The notes below the pieces were generated by a model. The model searched no databases and was not told the origin of the DNA. It saw nothing but the letters and a program-made list of their open reading frames with translations. A DNA stretch of 64,000 nt from Saccoglossus kowalevskii (taxonomy: Eukaryota > Hemichordata > Enteropneusta > Harrimaniidae): contig NW_003148769.1 in the NCBI RefSeq assembly GCF_000003605.2, positions 467,770 through 531,769 on the forward strand. Direction: 5' to 3'. A program made the position numbers and the translations under genes. How positions within the stretch are numbered: the first letter of the stretch is position 1; each line of letters opens with the position of its first letter. This document shows positions 275 through 61,512 of the stretch, in pieces.

Positions 275-8039
<7,765 letters not shown>

Positions 8040-51502: not shown

Positions 51503-54500
51503 TTATTTTCGTAATTTTGCTATAATACATTTGGTGATGACTGCTGCCACTAATGCTGCATATCGATCCCATCTATGGTCAGTCAGGCCATCAGAATAAT
51601 TACACACACCTCTCACAAACATACTCTGCTTCGCGGCAGTGTAAGTAGCTGAGGCAACACCACTGTTTTCCATTTCAAATCCAATTACATTTTCAGATTC
51701 TGCGAGTCTATCACGAATTTCTGCATTTTCCATGGCGCAGTTCGCTGATGCCAAAATACCGAAGTGTACTTTAGGTTCTCCTGGGGAACGTAACTTCTCT
51801 AATGGATGAGTTGATTCCCCTGGTAACACATCACTATTAGGTCTTCCAAACATTTCTCGGTTCTGTTGGTTCATTTTCGAGTAGATTTGCTTCAACGTTT
51901 CAGCTACTACTTTGCGGTTTTCTGGATCCATCTTGAACTCCCTTGCAGCATTCAACCCTTTCTGGGACAGCCGAATCGGGTTTTTTGACCTGATGTTTTC
52001 TGCAACATTTACAATGGCTTTTTGAGAAACGATTTTGCCTAAATCATACTGAATAAAAGCTGGGCCACTAGCGACTATTGGCGAGGAAACGATGACGTCA
52101 CCTTTGCGTACATGAGGACGAATATACGCTGTTGTTTCACTGACTTTCATATCATCATACTTTGTATTTGGCACTCCACCAGCCACGCCCACCATGAATA
52201 CTATTTCAACGGTATTGAATGTGTCACACAGATGGGTGGTAGTTATTGCTGCACTGACTTCACCAATCTCTCCAACTGGCAATTGAACTATTACTGTAGA
52301 CTTTCCGCCTATCTCCCCCAACTTGTAATGGTTAGGGTCACTTCCGGGTTGCTGACCGTCATACTCAGTGGGTGACTCTAGTATTGACATCACTGCCTGG
52401 TATTCCCAATCTGATGCAGTCACAATACCGATCTTCGGTGTATAACCTGGAATATCACATTTTACAGTTAGAAGTACATAGCAGTAATTATGAGATTGAA
52501 ATATATTTTTGTGGACTAGAATTTCAGACATAGCGATAGCAAATAGTATTGCTTTTATAACAATGGTATAATGAGCATGCTCCACAAATCAACCATTAAC
52601 AATAAATGAAAGGTAATCTGTCGTGTATAACCACACTGATAACTTACCTGCAGTGGCAAATTCGTCAGTCTTGGGAGCAAGGACATTAACAAACTGGCTA
52701 TGTGTATTCTTAATGGTTACACGATCTAAGAAATAATAAGATTATCCAAATTTGCATTACTCGTGTATGAGCGATAATAAGCTCAGACAATTCAAACAAT
52801 AAAATTATGAATTTAAAAAAGATTTAATCAATTCTATAGTATACTAACCTTTTGGGTACCAGAACTCTGGCAACTTGATTTGATGCGTTTTCCAACAACA
52901 GGGTTTATCAATAGAAACACAACCATCATCCACGTCGAGCGAATCCGGTACAGGTTTTGTTGCATCATGTTGACCACTTGTACATCTGATACATACTTTG
53001 TAGGATAACGCCGGGTATTGACTTTTGACCACTTCAGTCAGTGTATTATCTACATCTTCCCTGATCTTTGATCCTACGGATCCAAGCAGTCTGCTGGAAT
53101 CTGTACATGCAAGAATAATGTCGCATTTGTTCTTCGATATTAGCACATTGGTACGACTTTCTTCAATGAAAAATGTGGCTCCATTCTGAAACAACTCTAC
53201 ATTCTTCCATTTCTGTATGCGTTTCACAACAAGGTTGTAGAATATTCCATCTGGCAAGAAATTGTCGCTGAAATGAAAGTGAAGTGGAACAGTGCTTGAA
53301 TGGGATCTGGGAATGGGAAGTTCGCCCGTCTTCAGCATACATGGCATATAGTAGGAGGGCTTATCTGTGTCAGATATAACCGGACGCCTGCAAATAATAT
53401 TGAACTTTTTATACATTTCTAGAAGAACTTCTTTATCACAGGATCGGTCTTCCTGTCGAAGAACAATATCAACCATCTCTTCTTGTAATATACCATGGTT
53501 ATCAAGCTGACTGCAAAGCTTTCCTAGGCGAGGGGAATCACCAATTCTTTTCTTGTAAGAAGCCGATGTTGTTACGAGAATTCGCAACAAGTCAGCTAAC
53601 CAGGATGGATCAATTATAACCACGTTTCCTAGGATTCTGTCTTCATGAAAGTGGATAATTTCACGAATGCTGTGGTAAAATCGTAACATCTTGTCGACAG
53701 TGTCCGAGGTGAGGCCTAAACTTTCTCCAACTTCGTACACCTTTGACAAATTTACCCATCGCTTATTCAGTTGGCGCAGCTTCAGTTCCAGCTGTATTTG
53801 GACACTTGGCTGTTTACCGAGGTAACACGATTCCTCGGCAAGTGTCCGAAGTGCTTCCCGAAGCTCCGGTACTCCAGATCCTGACGAATTGTCAACAGCA
53901 TATATTCCAGCGTAGTTTTCGTGAGCACGTGGCGTAACATCTCGTACGTATTTCTCTATTCTAGACATACGATCAATAACAACCTCCTGAAAACATTACA
54001 TTGAAAAAAAATATATAATAAAACACGAACTGCATAAAATGTTTTTGGAGTATGATGTATTGAAAATCATTTGCATAGAAATGATTTATTGGTTCATAGT
54101 AACATTGTTAAATGACAAATACAGGAATTGGCATTGCATAACATGCCAACAAAAGTTTTCTTTCATGAATTAATTGATGTCATGTATAATTTTGATAATG
54201 ACCTCTGGTTGGATGTTCGACATATCGCCAACATTGATTGAGTCCGGGGAATCATGGTTTTAAGAAACGTAGAAAATATTAATTATAAAAGTGAAATAAA
54301 TGAAAATAAATACACAGATTCAAAGTAAAACTCTTTTCAAACATTTATAAATGGTAGTTACTAAATAGTTCACATCTTCTTGTATTGTTATTCAATGAAC
54401 TACAGAGAATCTGCGTTACATTTAAATTCACATATAATCATATTTTAAAATAAACTCATTCATGGCTTACCTGTGGAACCAAATCTGTTTTTGTGCAAAC

Positions 54501-57500
54501 TATGACGAACTTTGTAACTGATGTGTTTATTTCACTGCTGAATATCGAACGACCATATATTGAATTAATCCAATAGTACAACACATCTAGTAATGGATAA
54601 TAATAATTACTTAGATATCAGTTTGGAAAAGTAACTTTAATTAGAAAATGGTTTCACCCTTATATCTAGGAAACCGACACAAGTAATTACACCTTCTTGT
54701 CATGAGATGGGAAAGAAAACATTGACACGTGTATACTGGCAGTTTTCGATTTATGTAATAGCAAATGTAACCACTTACAGACCCTGGTCTAATAAAATAC
54801 ATACAAATTGGTAATTTAATGCAATGCATTCAATGATTTGCTAATGTGTATAAATATACACATTGGCAGGATCAGTTGTTATTGTATAAATAAAGGTACA
54901 ACAAACATTTACTGAACGCTGCTGAAACTGTTGTGTCATTTTAGGGAGGTACAGTTTTATATTAATCAAATCGTCATCTTAGGAGACAATATGTTGAAAA
55001 CAAATTGCGTCAATTATATATATTTACCTTTTTGCATCTCCAACGTCCCTGTGTCTTCACCTTCGAAATACTCAATTTTATCTTCAAGTAATTTGGAAAT
55101 GTCAACTACAAGAACGTAGATACATTTCCTCGCCAGAAATATCTATGTACAGGAGAAATAGTTTTAAATTATTGATTCGGTTTTATTATTATTGATTCTT
55201 AACACCTGCTTGAAACAAGCACGACTATGGAGCTGCACTTTTACTACACTGTGCAACAATTCATTATTTAATAAAATAATAACACGTGTTACAAAGTTAC
55301 AAAATATTTATTTTAGCTAACTTTGATTAAGATTGTTCAAAAACAAAAACTAATATACACAATTATGCAAACTTACCTGGTGAGCTGTATAATAAATTTT
55401 CTGACCAGCAAAATCCCATAGGGAGAAGTGAAAGTCTGGTGCGTCAATATCAATTGCATCCAATAGACCACATAAACGTATCAACATTTCCATTTCAGTT
55501 TCCCCGTCGAGTTTTAAGTAATCGTAAATACCGCCATCATCAACTTCATCCCGAGTTATACCTCCTTCCATGCTTGGATTCTGTTTCGCCTGACTTGCCA
55601 CTATATTCGCGAGTAGCTTTTTTAAATCGTCCTCTGGTATATTGCTGAAGTAGGAGCCGGCTTTACCTACAAATAATAAATACAAACAACGACAAAATAT
55701 TTATCAGTTGTCTATTGTCTAATTTGCTAATTTGCTAATTAGGCATTACTGATTAAAGTACTGACTAGAATACCGCATGACTAAGTGAACAACTGATTTG
55801 ATGCAGCTTAATATCTTAATGACAATATCAGGCGACTGAAAATATCTAATAGAACAAAATTATACAATACCAACAATAAGATTACAGACTATAAAATTAA
55901 CCGTAATACATACATTTGGTTTACATTATTTACATAAATTAATATGTCGCCAGTTTTTCTGGCCTGTAAATACATAGTTGTGATTGGATGAGAGTTTTAA
56001 TTTTTGCAAGTCAGGCTAAAGTTTCGTCAATCCCCAACATGCAATCGGGTCTATGGCGCTAATTGGTGTCTGTATATTTTACATTCAACTTTGCTACTAA
56101 AAGGTAACTACAAAACCGAAATATTGATGCAAATTCGCGTCACTGCTTGATGTATTTATTATCATTGTATGCACATTTCATTTAGCCATTGTTGCAAATA
56201 AAACGCTTCAAATGCTGATTCACATTTGAACATGTTGGTGCTTTAAAGTTTTCAGCATTTCAGAATTACCTATAAAATGAAGTGTGTATAATATACTAGG
56301 AATAAACAACACTAGAGGCATAGTATACCACCCAATGATGTAGCAAGAGATTTGAGTTATCGACTGAACTGAACGGGCTACCATCAAGGAAGTCTGGATG
56401 CAAATGCCTTAACTGTCGAGACATAAAAATATCACTAGCCTCTAATTAGCAACAAAGTCGCAGCCATCCCAAATAAACGGTTGATGTCACAAAAAAGGGA
56501 ATGTGACATTGACCAATAATAAATGGTATGCCACCTTCATTCATAAAATTTGATAATGAGATATAGCAGTGAATTTAGTGTCTGTATAAAATTTAGTCTG
56601 TATTACAAATTATGAAACAGAATATTGAAGGCTTTGCGTAGTATTTTCTCAAATACATCCTACTATTCCAGTAAATTCAAATACGCTCCAAAATATTTAA
56701 ATCAGTGAAATGTTTGCAAAGTTCTGACAACATTATAATGTGGTACAGTTCTTGCTGTTTGAAGGTTTTTGGGAAAAAAATGTGCAACTCCATCTTTAAT
56801 ATTCGCACTGCTGTCAGCCAGGGTGGACTCTCTGTAAAAAACCTGAATGCATATTATGTAAGATTATGATTTGTATACCTAGGAAATATACACAAATCTA
56901 ACAAATAAACTCAATTTTGATTACACGAAGTATTAATTCAGTTCACATCATTTTCAAAATGTGATTGAATACAGCTTGGTAATCTAGCAAATACATTACA
57001 TGCCTCTTTTTGTCCATGTTGATATTTCAATTCTAAATATTTCAATCCCATCTGTAGTTTTATATTCACGTTGATATTGTTCACCACCAATACTTCTAAT
57101 TGTTGATGTTTTTCCAGCTCCATAAGAACCAACAAACATGAAGCACCCTCTGTACGTTTCTTTGTGCGCATCTTGTGTTAAGGCAGCCTGGAATATGCCT
57201 GGTATGAAATACATATTTGTTATTCTATAATACAGACATTAGGTTATCATTGTATTTAGATTCAAATAGTAAAAATGACATCTGGTAACGGAAACACTAA
57301 ATAATGGTTACTTACCCTCTGTATCCATCAAATCGGTGCGAGAGAGAAAAAAAGAAACATAAAAATACCAGTTAGTGCTGTATTTGCAAATGTAATTTCA
57401 GTAATTGTAAAAATGACATCTGGTAATGGAAACACTAAATAATGTTTACTTACTCACTGTATCCATCAAATCGGTGTGGGAGAGAAAAAAAGAAACATAA

Positions 57501-60358
57501 AAATAAGAGTTAGTGCTGTATTTGCAAATGTAATTTCAGTTATTGTAAAAATGACATATGGTAATGGAAACACTAAATAATGTTTACTTACTTTCTGTAT
57601 CCATCAAATCGGTGCAAGAGAGAAAAAAAGAAATATAAAAATGCCAGTTAGTGCTGTATTTGCAAATGTAATTTCAGTTATTGTAAAAATGACATATGGT
57701 AATGGAAACACTAAATAATGTTTACTTACTTTCTGTATCCATCAAATCGGTGCAAGAGAGAAAAAAAGAAATATAAAAATACCAGTTAGTGCTGTATTTG
57801 CAAATGCAATTTCAGTAATTGTAAAAATGACTTATGGTAATGGAAACACTAAATAATGTTTACTTACCAACTGAATCCATCAAATCGGAGCGACATAGAA
57901 AAAAAGAAACATGAAAATACCAGTTAGTGCTGTATTTGTAAATGTAATTTCAGTTATTGTAAAAATGACATATGGTAATGGAAACACTAAATAATGTTTA
58001 CTTACAATCTGTATCCATCAAATCGGTGCAAGAGAGAAAAAAAGAAACATAAAAATATCAGTTAGTGCTGTATTTTCAAATACAATTTCAGTAATTGAGT
58101 AATGAAAACAGAAATATCAGCATAACATTATGTCATCATTGTATTTAGATTAGAATTGTAAAAATAACTTATGGTAATGGAAACACTAAATAATGTTTAC
58201 TTACGTTCTGTATCCATCAAATCGGTACAAGAGAGAAAAAAAGAAACATAAAAATACCAGTTAGTGCTGTATTTGCAAATGTAATTTCAGTAATTGTAAA
58301 AATGACTTATGGTAATGAAAACACTAAATAATGTTTACTTACGTTCTGTATTCATCAAATCGGTGCAAGAGAGAAATAAAGAAACATAAAAATACCAGTT
58401 AGTGCTGTATTTGCAAATGTAATTTCAGTAATTGTAAAAATGACTTATGGTAATGGAAACACTAAATAATGTTTACTTACGTTCTGTATTCATCAAATCG
58501 GTGTGGGAGAGAAAAAAAGAAACATAAAAATAACAGTTAGTGCTGTATTTGCAAATGTAATTTCAGTAATTGTAAAAATGACTTCTGGTAATGGAAACAC
58601 TAAATAATGTTTACTTACCAACTGTATCCATCAAATCGGAGCGACATAGAAAAAAAGAAACATGAAAATACCAGTTAGTGCTGTATTTGTAAATGTAATT
58701 TCAGTTATTGTAAAAATGACATATGGTAATGGAAATACTAAATAATGTTTACTTACAATCTGTATCCATCAAATCGGTGCAAGAGAGAAAAAAAGAAACA
58801 TAAAATACCAGTTAGTGCTGTATTTGCAAATGTAATATCAGTAATTGTAAAAATGACATCTGGTAAGGGAAACACTAAATAAGGTTTACTTACCAACTGA
58901 ATCCATCAAATCGGTGCGACATAGAAAAAAAGTAACATGAAAATACCAGTTAGTGCTGTATTTGCAAATACAATTTCAGTAATTGAGTAATGAAAACAGA
59001 AATATCCGCATAACATTATGTCATCATTGTATTTAGATTAGAATTGTAAAAATGACATCTGGTAATGGAAACACTAAATAATGGTTACTTACGTCCTGTA
59101 TCCATGAAATCGGTGCAAGAGAGAAAAAAAGAAACATAAAAATACCAGTTAGTGCTGTATTTGTAAATGTAATTTCAGTTATTGTAAAAATGACATACGG
59201 TAATGGAAACACTAAATAATGGTTACTTACGTCCTGTATCCATGAAATCGGTGCAAGAGAGAAAAAAAAGAAACATAACAATACCAGTTAGTGCTGTATT
59301 TGCAAATACAATTTCAGTAATTGAGTAATGAAAACAGAAATATCAGCATAACATTATGTCATCATTGTATTTAGATTAGAATTGTAAAAATGACTTATGG
59401 TAATGGAAACACTAAATAATGTTTACTTACCCGCTGTATCCATCAAATCGGTGCAAGAGAGAAAAAAAGAAACATAAAAATACCAGTTAGTGCTGTATTT
59501 GCAAATGTAATTTCAGTAATTGTAAAAATGAGATCTGGTAAGGGAAACACTAAATAATGTTTACTTACGTTCTGTATCCATCAAATCGGTGCAAGAGAGA
59601 AAAAAAGAAACATGAAAATACCAGTTAGTGCTGTATTTGTAAATGTAATTTCAGTAATTGTAAAAATGATATCTGGTAATGGAATTACTTAATACGGTCT
59701 ACTTACGCTCTATTTTCGTCAAATCTGTGTGAGATAAAAAAAGGAAAAATATCGTTTCGGTCAGTCATGTTCACCAATGGCAATGTAACATTCCCCGGAC
59801 CTTACTGACAGTCTGCATGTGGGGTACTCAACATAAAGCCAAGTATTTGATGATTTCAGTTACGAAATAAAGTATTACAGGCAAGAATGGGATCACTAAG
59901 AAGAAGAGGTCATGCTGTGCCTTTGCGAAAATATGAATATTATTTACTGTCCGCAAATTTCATGGCTTGCATAGAATGTTGCATAATCTTTCCAGAAAGC
60001 CTAACGTTGCCGGAGTCATACGGTATCTGAAATGCAGCCCAGGTGTTATTGTGTCTGAATTTCAGTCCTATGACATCCGTTTATATACACAGTTTTCTAT
60101 TTGAATTAACCAATCCCAAGAAAGATAGAGACAATTACAAATAATCAGGTGTGGCATCCACTAATCAGGAGAGGCCCAAAATAGCGTTAAACAATAGGCT
60201 TCACAAGCAGATGTAATTGTTCTTGGCTGTAAGCTTACAAACTCAGAATATATATAAGGACCATGACGCGGTGAATGAGTGTGAAATGTTGCTAAAATAT
60301 CTTCAAATTAAACATGCACAGCAATATCTCACATACCTTGTATGTCATCCTCATTTTC
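51503..60358 (-). CDS. Roc-COR GTPase with C-terminal nucleoside-phosphorylase-like domain (10 exons, 5' end unresolved)
   Basis: Minus-strand exons: 60337-60358, 59707-59724, 57000-57198, 56809-56831, 55377-55666, 55028-55142, 54471-54586, 52849-53986, 52648-52725, 51503-52446. They join in phase into 980 residues plus stop. Roc domain: P-loop GSYGAGKTS about 37-45, DFAG 172-175, TKTD 254-257. COR domain about 262-640, with HFHEDRILGNVVIIDPSWL. C-terminal domain about 667-980 is of the PNP/UDP phosphorylase (MTAN-like) fold: VTASDWEYQA, GVAGGVP, GFEMENSG and CNYSDG. ROCO proteins are GTP-controlled scaffolds. The appended nucleosidase-type domain suggests purine-nucleoside or NAD-related chemistry in signalling or defence; that is inference. 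The kinase and LRR parts of LRRK-type ROCOs are absent from the seen exons. The 23-nt exon is supported only by phase and borders. The start codon is not established. Confidence 0.85.
57290..59745 (-). repeat. Tandem array of 17 splice-site cassettes, unit about 138 bp
   Basis: Sixteen direct units plus one diverged outer unit lie in the intron before the P-loop exon. Each, on the minus strand, carries CACTAAC (branch-point-like), a long pyrimidine tract, ACCGATTTGATGGATACAG, three variable bases, then GTAAGT. From 57316 to 59707 the triplets are AGG, TGA, AAA, AAA, TTG, ATT, AAC, AAC, AAC, TTG, ATT, TTG, GAC, GAC, CGG, AAC, AGC. Units are otherwise about 90-97% alike. Some hold an extra 55-60 bases with CATTATGTCATCATTG, making a higher-order pattern. 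The outermost unit (59707-59724) is a true 18-nt exon with a CACAG acceptor. In the other sixteen that acceptor reads CCG and is lost. Confidence 0.9.
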
Positions 60359-60823: not shown

Positions 60824-61512
60824 CAACAACAGAGTAACAGAAATCATTGGCCAAAAGTCGATTTCTTTGTGATCTCATAGTTCAAGTAGTTTTGAATGTA
60901 TGTTGGTTTATTTTAGAAAAATAAGATTATTTATGAAATCACTGGATTCACATGGTAAAAAATCAAGTAACTACCTCTATGTGACCATGTGAATATCGGA
61001 AAACAACAATGTCGCGACATGCTAACACGGCGGTGATGAGACCGACCTTTAATTAATGGTTTTTCATGAAACATGATTCTCTCAAATCGCCAACAAGCTT
61101 GGCAGTATTCAACAACGATAAGGCTAATAAACACTACGCTAAAGTATGCAAAAGAATCGGCATATCAGCGTTTTTAAATAACACTGCTGGTACACATTTA
61201 ATACATAGAATACTTATGAACTTACCATTATGCCAATATTCTGTGTTGTCGACCAATGCTAATAACAATGTAAATGACGCTTCAGTCGTCAGTCGATTAT
61301 CATTCTAATCCAACAATGGCGACATCTCAGTCTCGCAATGTGGCACTGCAATAAAATAAGTTTTAATAGCATCGACGAACTGCACGAACATCCAGGCTAA
61401 TCTATAATATATCAGAGTGAAATCCACGTAACGCAATGTACAAGTATAAGGGAGCGAGCACAATGTAAACACAATGTTCTAAAGGCAGTAAATACGAAGG
61501 AAAAATACTTAC

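What the first reader, a model, noticed from the sequence alone, without database searches (positions are those of the whole stretch)
57290..59745. Array of 16 potential 3-nt micro-exons with hypervariable triplets before a P-loop exon
Each unit keeps a branch-point-like CACTAAC, a pyrimidine tract, an AG and a perfect GTAAGT, with exactly three bases between AG and GT. Those bases differ among units (nine different triplets in 16 units) while flanks are nearly constant. Three-base inclusion never shifts frame. The upstream exon ends phase 1 (CAA G) and the downstream exon opens GC, so a single insertion gives Q-[E/V/D/G/A]-[G/S/C/R]-I-F-Q with no stop for any unit, even TGA. This could be a protein-diversifying cassette at the edge of a GTPase domain. 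The alternative, a decoy splice-site minisatellite tuning transcription or splicing, is equally testable.
Basis: partly seen in the sequence, partly recalled or inferred. Interest (0 to 1): 0.88.

Follow-up and report, generated by a model that had tools for sequence, protein, structure and literature searches.

The report
Sixteen one-codon exons in a row
An acorn-worm gene for a large GTP-binding protein appears to carry sixteen consecutive exons of only three bases each, separated by near-identical short introns, so that one stretch of the protein would be built codon by codon; if RNA confirms it, this is an extreme form of gene splitting.

Summary
On the minus strand 16 units each carry a branch-point motif, a pyrimidine tract, CAG, exactly 3 nt, then GTAAGTA. 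The three columns between CAG and GT are the most variable of 117 compared: mean pairwise difference 0.686 against 0.060 in the flanks. CAG, GTAAGTA and the branch-point motif do not vary. Of five other repeat loci in the genome with CAG-NNN-GTAAGT, four keep NNN fixed or nearly so; in the fifth it varies little more than its poorly conserved flanks.

Joining all 16 triplets in order gives an open frame, M-ENEDDIQ-DLTKIE-QPGRLDFEQQHFEKMK-GIFQ...GAGKTS, inside a 988-residue Roc-COR-PNP gene model. I favour serial inclusion, intron by intron, over choosing one unit. The array probably grew by tandem duplication from an 18-nt exon, with recombination between units. Selection on the triplets is inferred, not shown. 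The genome is Saccoglossus kowalevskii or very close. No RNA was available, and the homologues found lack a usable N-terminus, so inclusion itself is unproven.

The parts
61226..61228 (-). proposed start codon at the very end of a 5' exon (ATG|GTAAGT)
   Evidence: joins in frame to the 22-nt exon; inferred
60337..60358 (-). 22-nt micro-exon GAAAATGAGGATGACATACAAG (ENEDDIQ, ends phase 1), TTTTAG/GTATGT
59707..59724 (-). 18-nt micro-exon ATTTGACGAAAATAGAGC, the likely founder of the array (DLTKIE)
   Evidence: resembles the last 18 nt of each unit
59569..59571 (-). 3-nt exon AAC
59431..59433 (-). 3-nt exon CGG
59231..59233 (-). 3-nt exon GAC
59093..59095 (-). 3-nt exon GAC
58894..58896 (-). 3-nt exon TTG
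58757..58759 (-). 3-nt exon ATT
58619..58621 (-). 3-nt exon TTG
58481..58483 (-). 3-nt exon AAC
58343..58345 (-). 3-nt exon AAC
58205..58207 (-). 3-nt exon AAC
58006..58008 (-). 3-nt exon ATT
57868..57870 (-). 3-nt exon TTG
57730..57732 (-). 3-nt exon AAA
57592..57594 (-). 3-nt exon AAA
57454..57456 (-). 3-nt exon TGA (read A|TG A|AG in phase 1, not a stop)
57316..57318 (-). 3-nt exon AGG
57004..57198 (-). P-loop exon (GIFQAAL...GSYGAGKTS), GC donor AG|GCATGT
55377..55666 (-). Roc exon with WDFAGQ
55028..55142 (-). Roc exon
54471..54586 (-). Roc exon with CTKTDL
52849..53986 (-). COR exon
   Evidence: PF16095 COR-A
52648..52725 (-). linker exon
51503..52446 (-). PNP_UDP_1 exon to the stop codon
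   Evidence: PF01048

Best explanation
A chain of sixteen 3-nt coding exons, spliced in series by intron definition, encodes 16 residues just before the P-loop exon of a Roc-COR-PNP protein. Each intron between units (thirteen of 134-135 nt, three of 196-197 nt) has an invariant GTAAGTA, a branch-point motif, an AG-free zone and a CAG; a last intron of 117 nt leads to the P-loop exon. Removing them in order joins one triplet at a time onto an 18-nt micro-exon and then onto the P-loop exon, giving DLTKIE-QPGRLDFEQQHFEKMK-GIFQAAL. Shown from sequence: the signals, the open frame, the concentration of variation in the triplets, and recombination between units. Inferred: the duplication history (copying of an 18-nt-exon/intron unit whose first AG became CG, moving the 3' splice site 15 nt downstream and leaving 3 nt of exon), selection on the triplets as coding sequence, and actual inclusion in mRNA.
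For: Triplet columns are the 3 most variable of 117, 11-fold over the flanks and 11-14-fold by parsimony. No change in CAG, GTAAGTA or the branch-point motif across the 16 units. The branch-point-to-AG interval is AG-free in 16 of 16. Control: five other repeat loci of the same genome contain CAG-NNN-GTAAGT. Their triplet versus 20+20-nt flank differences are 0.000/0.146 (7 copies), 0.000/0.038 (4), 0.000/0.100 (3), 0.095/0.223 (7) and, in the fifth, irregular one, 0.444/0.321 (4); here 0.686/0.068 (16). The serial reading is open, while 82.6% of 50,000 shuffles of the same triplets hit a stop. Serial inclusion completes a 988-residue frame from ATG to stop with Roc, COR-A and PNP_UDP_1 domains. 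Introns of 123 and 201 nt occur elsewhere in the gene model, so 135 nt is an ordinary size here (from the coordinates). Only 5 of 16 triplets end in G, so the exonic side does not follow the usual 5' splice-site consensus (recalled) while the intronic side is perfect.
Against: No RNA data. No homologue with the array residues was found: the Saccoglossus homologues P0001 and P0004 start inside the P-loop exon, and the Ptychodera homologue's first 13 residues look like a translated 3' splice site (my reading, no DNA seen). A search with residues 1-110 found nothing. Triplet order has no unusual helical moment (stop-free shuffles reach it in 60% and 38%). A stop-free order is only p about 0.17, and 31% of random triplet sets of intron-like composition are stop-free. 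The triplet position that falls on the codon wobble varies as much as the others (changes 4, 6, 5), which does not favour simple selection on amino acids through point mutation. Intron sites next to the triplets are not more diverged than mid-intron sites, so intron conversion with selection against conversion of exons is not clearly supported either. One of five control repeats also has a variable triplet.
Confidence: 0.52

Rival explanations
1. Alternative or stochastic inclusion: each transcript takes up none, one or a subset of the 3-nt exons, so the array diversifies the residues before the P-loop.
For: Any single unit keeps the frame without a stop. 127 of 136 contiguous skips are stop-free. 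Near-identical introns and equally strong sites would be expected to allow skipping (inference). The triplet diversity itself.
Against: Five of 8 triplet types are repeated (AAC four times), which adds nothing to a one-of-N choice. No docking-selector complementarity: z -0.03 with the upstream intron, -0.80 with the last intron, 0.31 with the start of the first array intron; one unit tested. 38% of random half-subsets contain a stop. Close adjacent splice sites favour serial joining (inference).
Confidence: 0.27
2. A non-coding intronic minisatellite: splice-like motifs without use, or decoys tuning splicing of the 3.1-kb interval.
For: A tandem array of 138-nt units with recombination between units is ordinary minisatellite behaviour. 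No transcript was available and no protein found shows inclusion. The reversed control pattern matches the genome 84 times and the forward pattern 19 times, so splice-like spacing in repeats is common.
Against: No minisatellite process is known to me that changes exactly the three bases between CAG and GT 11 times faster than neighbours while leaving CAG and GTAAGTA untouched. Four of five other repeat loci with that motif do not do so; the fifth varies throughout.
Confidence: 0.14
3. Near-identical introns inserted into, or were copied over, a pre-existing contiguous exon every 3 nt (introner-like spread or intron-precise retro-homogenisation), so the triplets are simply the old exon.
For: The concatenated triplets read open. 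Flanks differ by 2 of 114 sites between some units whose triplets differ at 3 of 3. The sharp boundary falls at the splice sites.
Against: Upstream intron variants travel with their triplet: the three TTG units and no others carry A44/G46, only the two GAC units carry C59, only the two AAA units carry A29; association p 0.032 on the upstream side, 0.39 downstream. That points to triplets duplicated as DNA. The scored genome matches of the intron lie in this array (12 of 12; that search skips very common words and is a lower bound).
Confidence: 0.07

Closest known systems
Schistosome micro-exon genes (MEG)
   Same: Most of the coding region is made of very small symmetrical exons (PMC4350168, passages).
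   Different: MEG exons are larger (several to 36 nt, recalled) and encode mostly secreted parasite proteins. Here there are 16 exons of exactly 3 nt with near-identical introns, at the N-terminus of a Roc-COR protein.
RPS24 consecutive micro-exons (3, 18 and 22 bp)
   Same: A 3-bp exon next to 18- and 22-bp exons, the same three sizes as here (PMC12686416, passages including part of the abstract).
   Different: One 3-bp exon, not sixteen; alternatively spliced; no tandem duplication mentioned in the passages seen.
Drosophila homothorax 3-bp micro-exon
   Same: An exon of 3 bp, conserved and functional (PMC7392893, abstract).
   Different: Single; it is the first three nt of a longer exon, used alternatively.
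Arabidopsis APC11 single-nucleotide exon
   Same: Shows that an exon of 1 nt is spliced constitutively (PMC4674806, abstract and opening text).
   Different: A single exon; no array.
Plant micro-exons of 1-15 nt
   Same: Very small coding exons, most of them missing from annotation (PMC8831610, passages).
   Different: In the passages seen, adjacent ones occur in pairs of different size, not as an array of equal 3-nt exons.
Primate L/M opsin genes
   Same: Introns of duplicates more alike than exons, explained by gene conversion in introns with selection keeping exons different (PMC3213168, abstract).
   Different: Whole genes, not one-codon exons; here divergence is not raised at intron sites next to the triplets.
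Intron gain by tandem genomic duplication
   Same: A new intron arises through tandem duplication (PMC4974935, search listing and start of abstract).
   Different: There one duplication gives an intron; here repeated rounds would each add an intron and a codon.

Membership tests
3-nt micro-exon | complete 3' and 5' splice signals flanking exactly 3 nt | tested here: met
   16 of 16 units
3-nt micro-exon | inclusion in mature mRNA | not testable with these tools
   no transcript data; no protein of this locus appeared in the length ranges searched
Micro-exon gene (MEG-like) | several consecutive micro-exons that keep the frame | tested here: met
   22-nt and 18-nt exons followed by 16 of 3 nt, gene frame open; at the level of gene model only
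Schistosome MEG family | coding region mostly made of micro-exons | tested here: not met
   most of the 988 residues lie in large exons; domains Roc, COR-A, PNP_UDP_1
Mutually exclusive exon cluster (Dscam type) | docking sequence complementary to a selector in each unit (recalled) | tested here: inconclusive
   duplex energy of one unit intron with three flanking stretches no better than shuffles; one unit only
Introner-like element | near-identical introns dispersed in many genes | tested here: inconclusive
   12 of 12 scored genome matches lie in this array, but that search skips very common words and scores only the best candidates
ROCO (Roc-COR) protein | Roc GTPase domain followed by COR | tested here: met
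   PF08477 1.5e-11, PF16095 9.4e-10; COR-B 19.8 bits, below its cut-off of 27

The most novel reading that the evidence does not exclude
A codon-by-codon exon array: the protein segment before a GTPase P-loop is written as sixteen one-codon exons whose number and identity can change by duplicating or recombining a 138-nt unit, and whose splicing may vary from transcript to transcript, making the array both an evolutionary and a somatic diversifier of one segment of an immune-type receptor.
Probability: 0.2. Interest if true: 0.95.

Novelty: new variant of a known kind. Interest (0 to 1): 0.8.

Why it matters
Exons of 3 nt lie near the limit of splicing: PMC4674806 (abstract) gives 3 nt as the smallest alternatively spliced and 6 nt as the smallest constitutive exon known before its own 1-nt case. 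Sixteen in succession, with near-identical 135-nt introns, would be a natural test of whether the spliceosome can join single codons in series by intron definition, and in what order. It would also show a route by which a protein grows one residue at a time through DNA duplication, with hypervariable residues. Annotation may miss such genes: no protein of this locus turned up in the searches made, although that can have other causes.

Tried and rejected
Searching for homologues with the array residues: three protein searches gave Saccoglossus P0001 and P0004, which begin inside the P-loop exon, Ptychodera P0005, and two distant hits (P0002, P0003). BLAST aligns LDFEQQHF with LLFYQEFF of P0005, but I do not count this: P0005 residues 1-13 (MCEHKYSLLLFYQ) read like a translated pyrimidine tract ending in CAG.

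Amphipathic-helix test: not significant. Docking complementarity: none in one unit. Intron RNA fold: z -0.62. Dispersed introner: 12 of 12 scored matches in this array.

Arrays in paralogues: the contigs of L013, L014 and L044 (C3952, C3354, C1359), which hold related P-loop exons, have no match to the pattern; tandem-repeat scans were run on L042, L043 and L044 only. L042 (gene C2347) is N from 1854 on, so its upstream part could not be read. No P-loop exon was found in L042, L043, L045 or L046 at E 0.01.

A structure prediction of the spliced protein was not tried, because the tool's description admits only proteins read letter for letter from the DNA.
Full report
WHAT IS THERE. On the minus strand between 59706 and 57315 lie 17 GTAAGTA sites: one closing an 18-nt exon, and 16 in units of 137-138 nt (three of 199-200 nt) (tandem arrays seen independently). 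In each of the 16, CAG is followed by exactly 3 nt and then GTAAGTA. A CTAAC branch-point motif lies 53-55 nt upstream with no other AG in between, in 16 of 16. The triplets are AAC CGG GAC GAC TTG ATT TTG AAC AAC AAC ATT TTG AAA AAA TGA AGG. Units were found by their GTAAGTA, but counts of CACTAAC (16) and of the pre-exon motif (17) show that no unit with a broken donor was overlooked.

MORE THAN CHANCE. In the alignment of the 16 units (the founder unit, the first 3 columns, 2 gapped columns and the columns from 122 on were left out of the counts) the triplet columns are the three most variable of 117. Mean pairwise difference is 0.686 against 0.060 in 114 flank columns. Four listed unit pairs differ at all 3 triplet bases but at only 2 of 114 flank bases. 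Parsimony gives 4, 6 and 5 changes at the triplet columns against 41 over all 114 flank columns, and none in CAG, GTAAGTA or the branch-point motif.

CONTROL. I searched the whole genome for CAGNNNGTAAGT-N(110-140)-CAGNNNGTAAGT: 19 matches, 12 of them in this array; the tool's reversed pattern gave 84, so such spacing in repeats is not rare in itself. The other 7 matches lie in five repeat loci. Triplet difference versus 20+20-nt flank difference: TAT 7 of 7, 0.000 versus 0.146; ATT 4 of 4, 0.000 versus 0.038; CCA 3 of 3, 0.000 versus 0.100; GTA 6 of 7, 0.095 versus 0.223; and an irregular repeat with GGA, GAA, GAA, TTA, 0.444 versus 0.321. The array here gives 0.686 versus 0.068. In four controls the triplet is calmer than its flanks and in one it is 1.4 times as variable; here it is ten times as variable. 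The controls differ in unit length and divergence, so they are not perfectly matched.

THE GENE. A gene model with ordinary splice sites (one GC donor, after the P-loop exon) runs from ATG at 61228 through a 22-nt exon, an 18-nt exon, the 16 triplets, the P-loop exon (57198-57004), Roc and COR exons and a PNP exon to a stop at 51503. It has 989 codons including the stop and no internal stop. Pfam finds Roc (1.5e-11), PNP_UDP_1 (7.3e-11) and COR-A (9.4e-10). The nearest solved relatives by sequence are 4wnr, 3dpu and LRRK2 entries (that the first two are bacterial Roco proteins is recalled). The best homologue is Saccoglossus kowalevskii LOC102809977 (P0001, 46% over 94%). P0001 itself matches the window's genome on contig C2347 in five pieces at 99, 97, 94, 94 and 72%, so the genome is S. 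kowalevskii or something very close.

HOW IT MOST LIKELY WORKS. The frame passes through the array only in phase 1: CAA G | triplets | GC ATA. All 16 in order read Q P G R L D F E Q Q H F E K M K followed by G I F Q A A L. Shuffling the same triplets creates a stop in 82.6% of 50,000 orders, and skipping either TTG that follows ATT creates one; this is modest evidence (p about 0.17). With introns of 134-135 or 196-197 nt between units, a last one of 117 nt, and full signals on each, intron definition can remove them one after another; 3 nt is too short for exon definition (recalled). Only 5 of 16 triplets end in G, as if coding need overrode the exonic half of the 5' splice site while the intronic half stayed perfect. 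I therefore favour serial inclusion, at 0.52. Inclusion is inferred, not shown.

HOW IT AROSE. The last 18 nt of the units (ATTTGATGGATACAG, with small variations, plus triplet) correspond to the 18-nt exon ATTTGACGAAAATAGAGC, and CACAG before that exon corresponds to the CACCG or near variant in the units. Loss of that AG would move the 3' splice site 15 nt, to the next AG, and leave a 3-nt exon. Amplification was by DNA duplication: upstream variants travel with the triplet (association p 0.032 over 46 upstream columns, p 0.39 over 42 downstream), and units recombine (24 of 91 site pairs fail the four-gamete test). Triplet differences persisting while flanks stay alike suggests selection on the triplets. 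Two results do not fit the simplest forms of that idea: the wobble position varies as much as the others, and intron sites beside the triplets are not more diverged than elsewhere.

WHAT COULD NOT BE TESTED. The homologues found do not reach the array: P0001 and P0004 start at the Met inside the P-loop exon, and P0005 from Ptychodera begins with what looks like translated intron. A search with residues 1-110 gave no hit among 25 candidates, and no near-identical protein of this locus appeared among the scored candidates of 543-1729 residues (7993 scored, capped) or about 223-709 residues (4091). That fits a gene whose annotation failed, but it may have other causes. Other intron spacings were not searched in the genome. 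An immune role is a guess from the domain mix; nothing here tests it.

AGAINST WHAT IS KNOWN. Single 3-bp exons are known (homothorax, PMC7392893, abstract; RPS24 with 3, 18 and 22 bp in a row, PMC12686416, passages), as is a 1-nt exon (PMC4674806, abstract and opening text). Schistosome MEGs are genes of many symmetrical tiny exons (PMC4350168, passages). Small plant micro-exons are mostly unannotated (PMC8831610, passages). Opsin genes show introns more alike than exons through conversion and selection (PMC3213168, abstract). In the held open-access library I found no array of consecutive 3-nt exons (searches; two of them returned nothing at all, and listings were read, not whole papers). 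I rate this a new variant of a known kind.

CHANGES ON CHECKING. 

Noticed in passing
window 56998-57003, minus strand: The P-loop exon appears to use a GC donor (AG|GCATGT).
   Followed up: partly
window 59430-59234, 59092-58897 and 58204-58009, minus strand: Three introns carry about 61 extra nt that resemble part of the last intron before the P-loop exon (by eye), perhaps the ancestral long form.
   Followed up: no
C601:114773-117217 (L032, L040): Pieces of a related gene at 76-77% identity to P0001, one with two stops inside: a likely pseudogene or partial copy.
   Followed up: no
L044:3917-5036: A 28-copy, 40-bp minisatellite about 1 kb upstream of a paralogue's P-loop exon; the consensus unit contains TAGGTTAAT but no GTAAGT.
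   Followed up: no
L013:4240-4350 and 4776-4985: A Roc paralogue preceded by a stretch reading like an ankyrin repeat (TPLDYAKANNHTDIMKELTKSKK; my reading, no family search).
   Followed up: no
P0005 (Ptychodera flava): The first 13 residues of this database protein look like a translated 3' splice site, so the annotated N-terminus may be wrong.
   Followed up: partly
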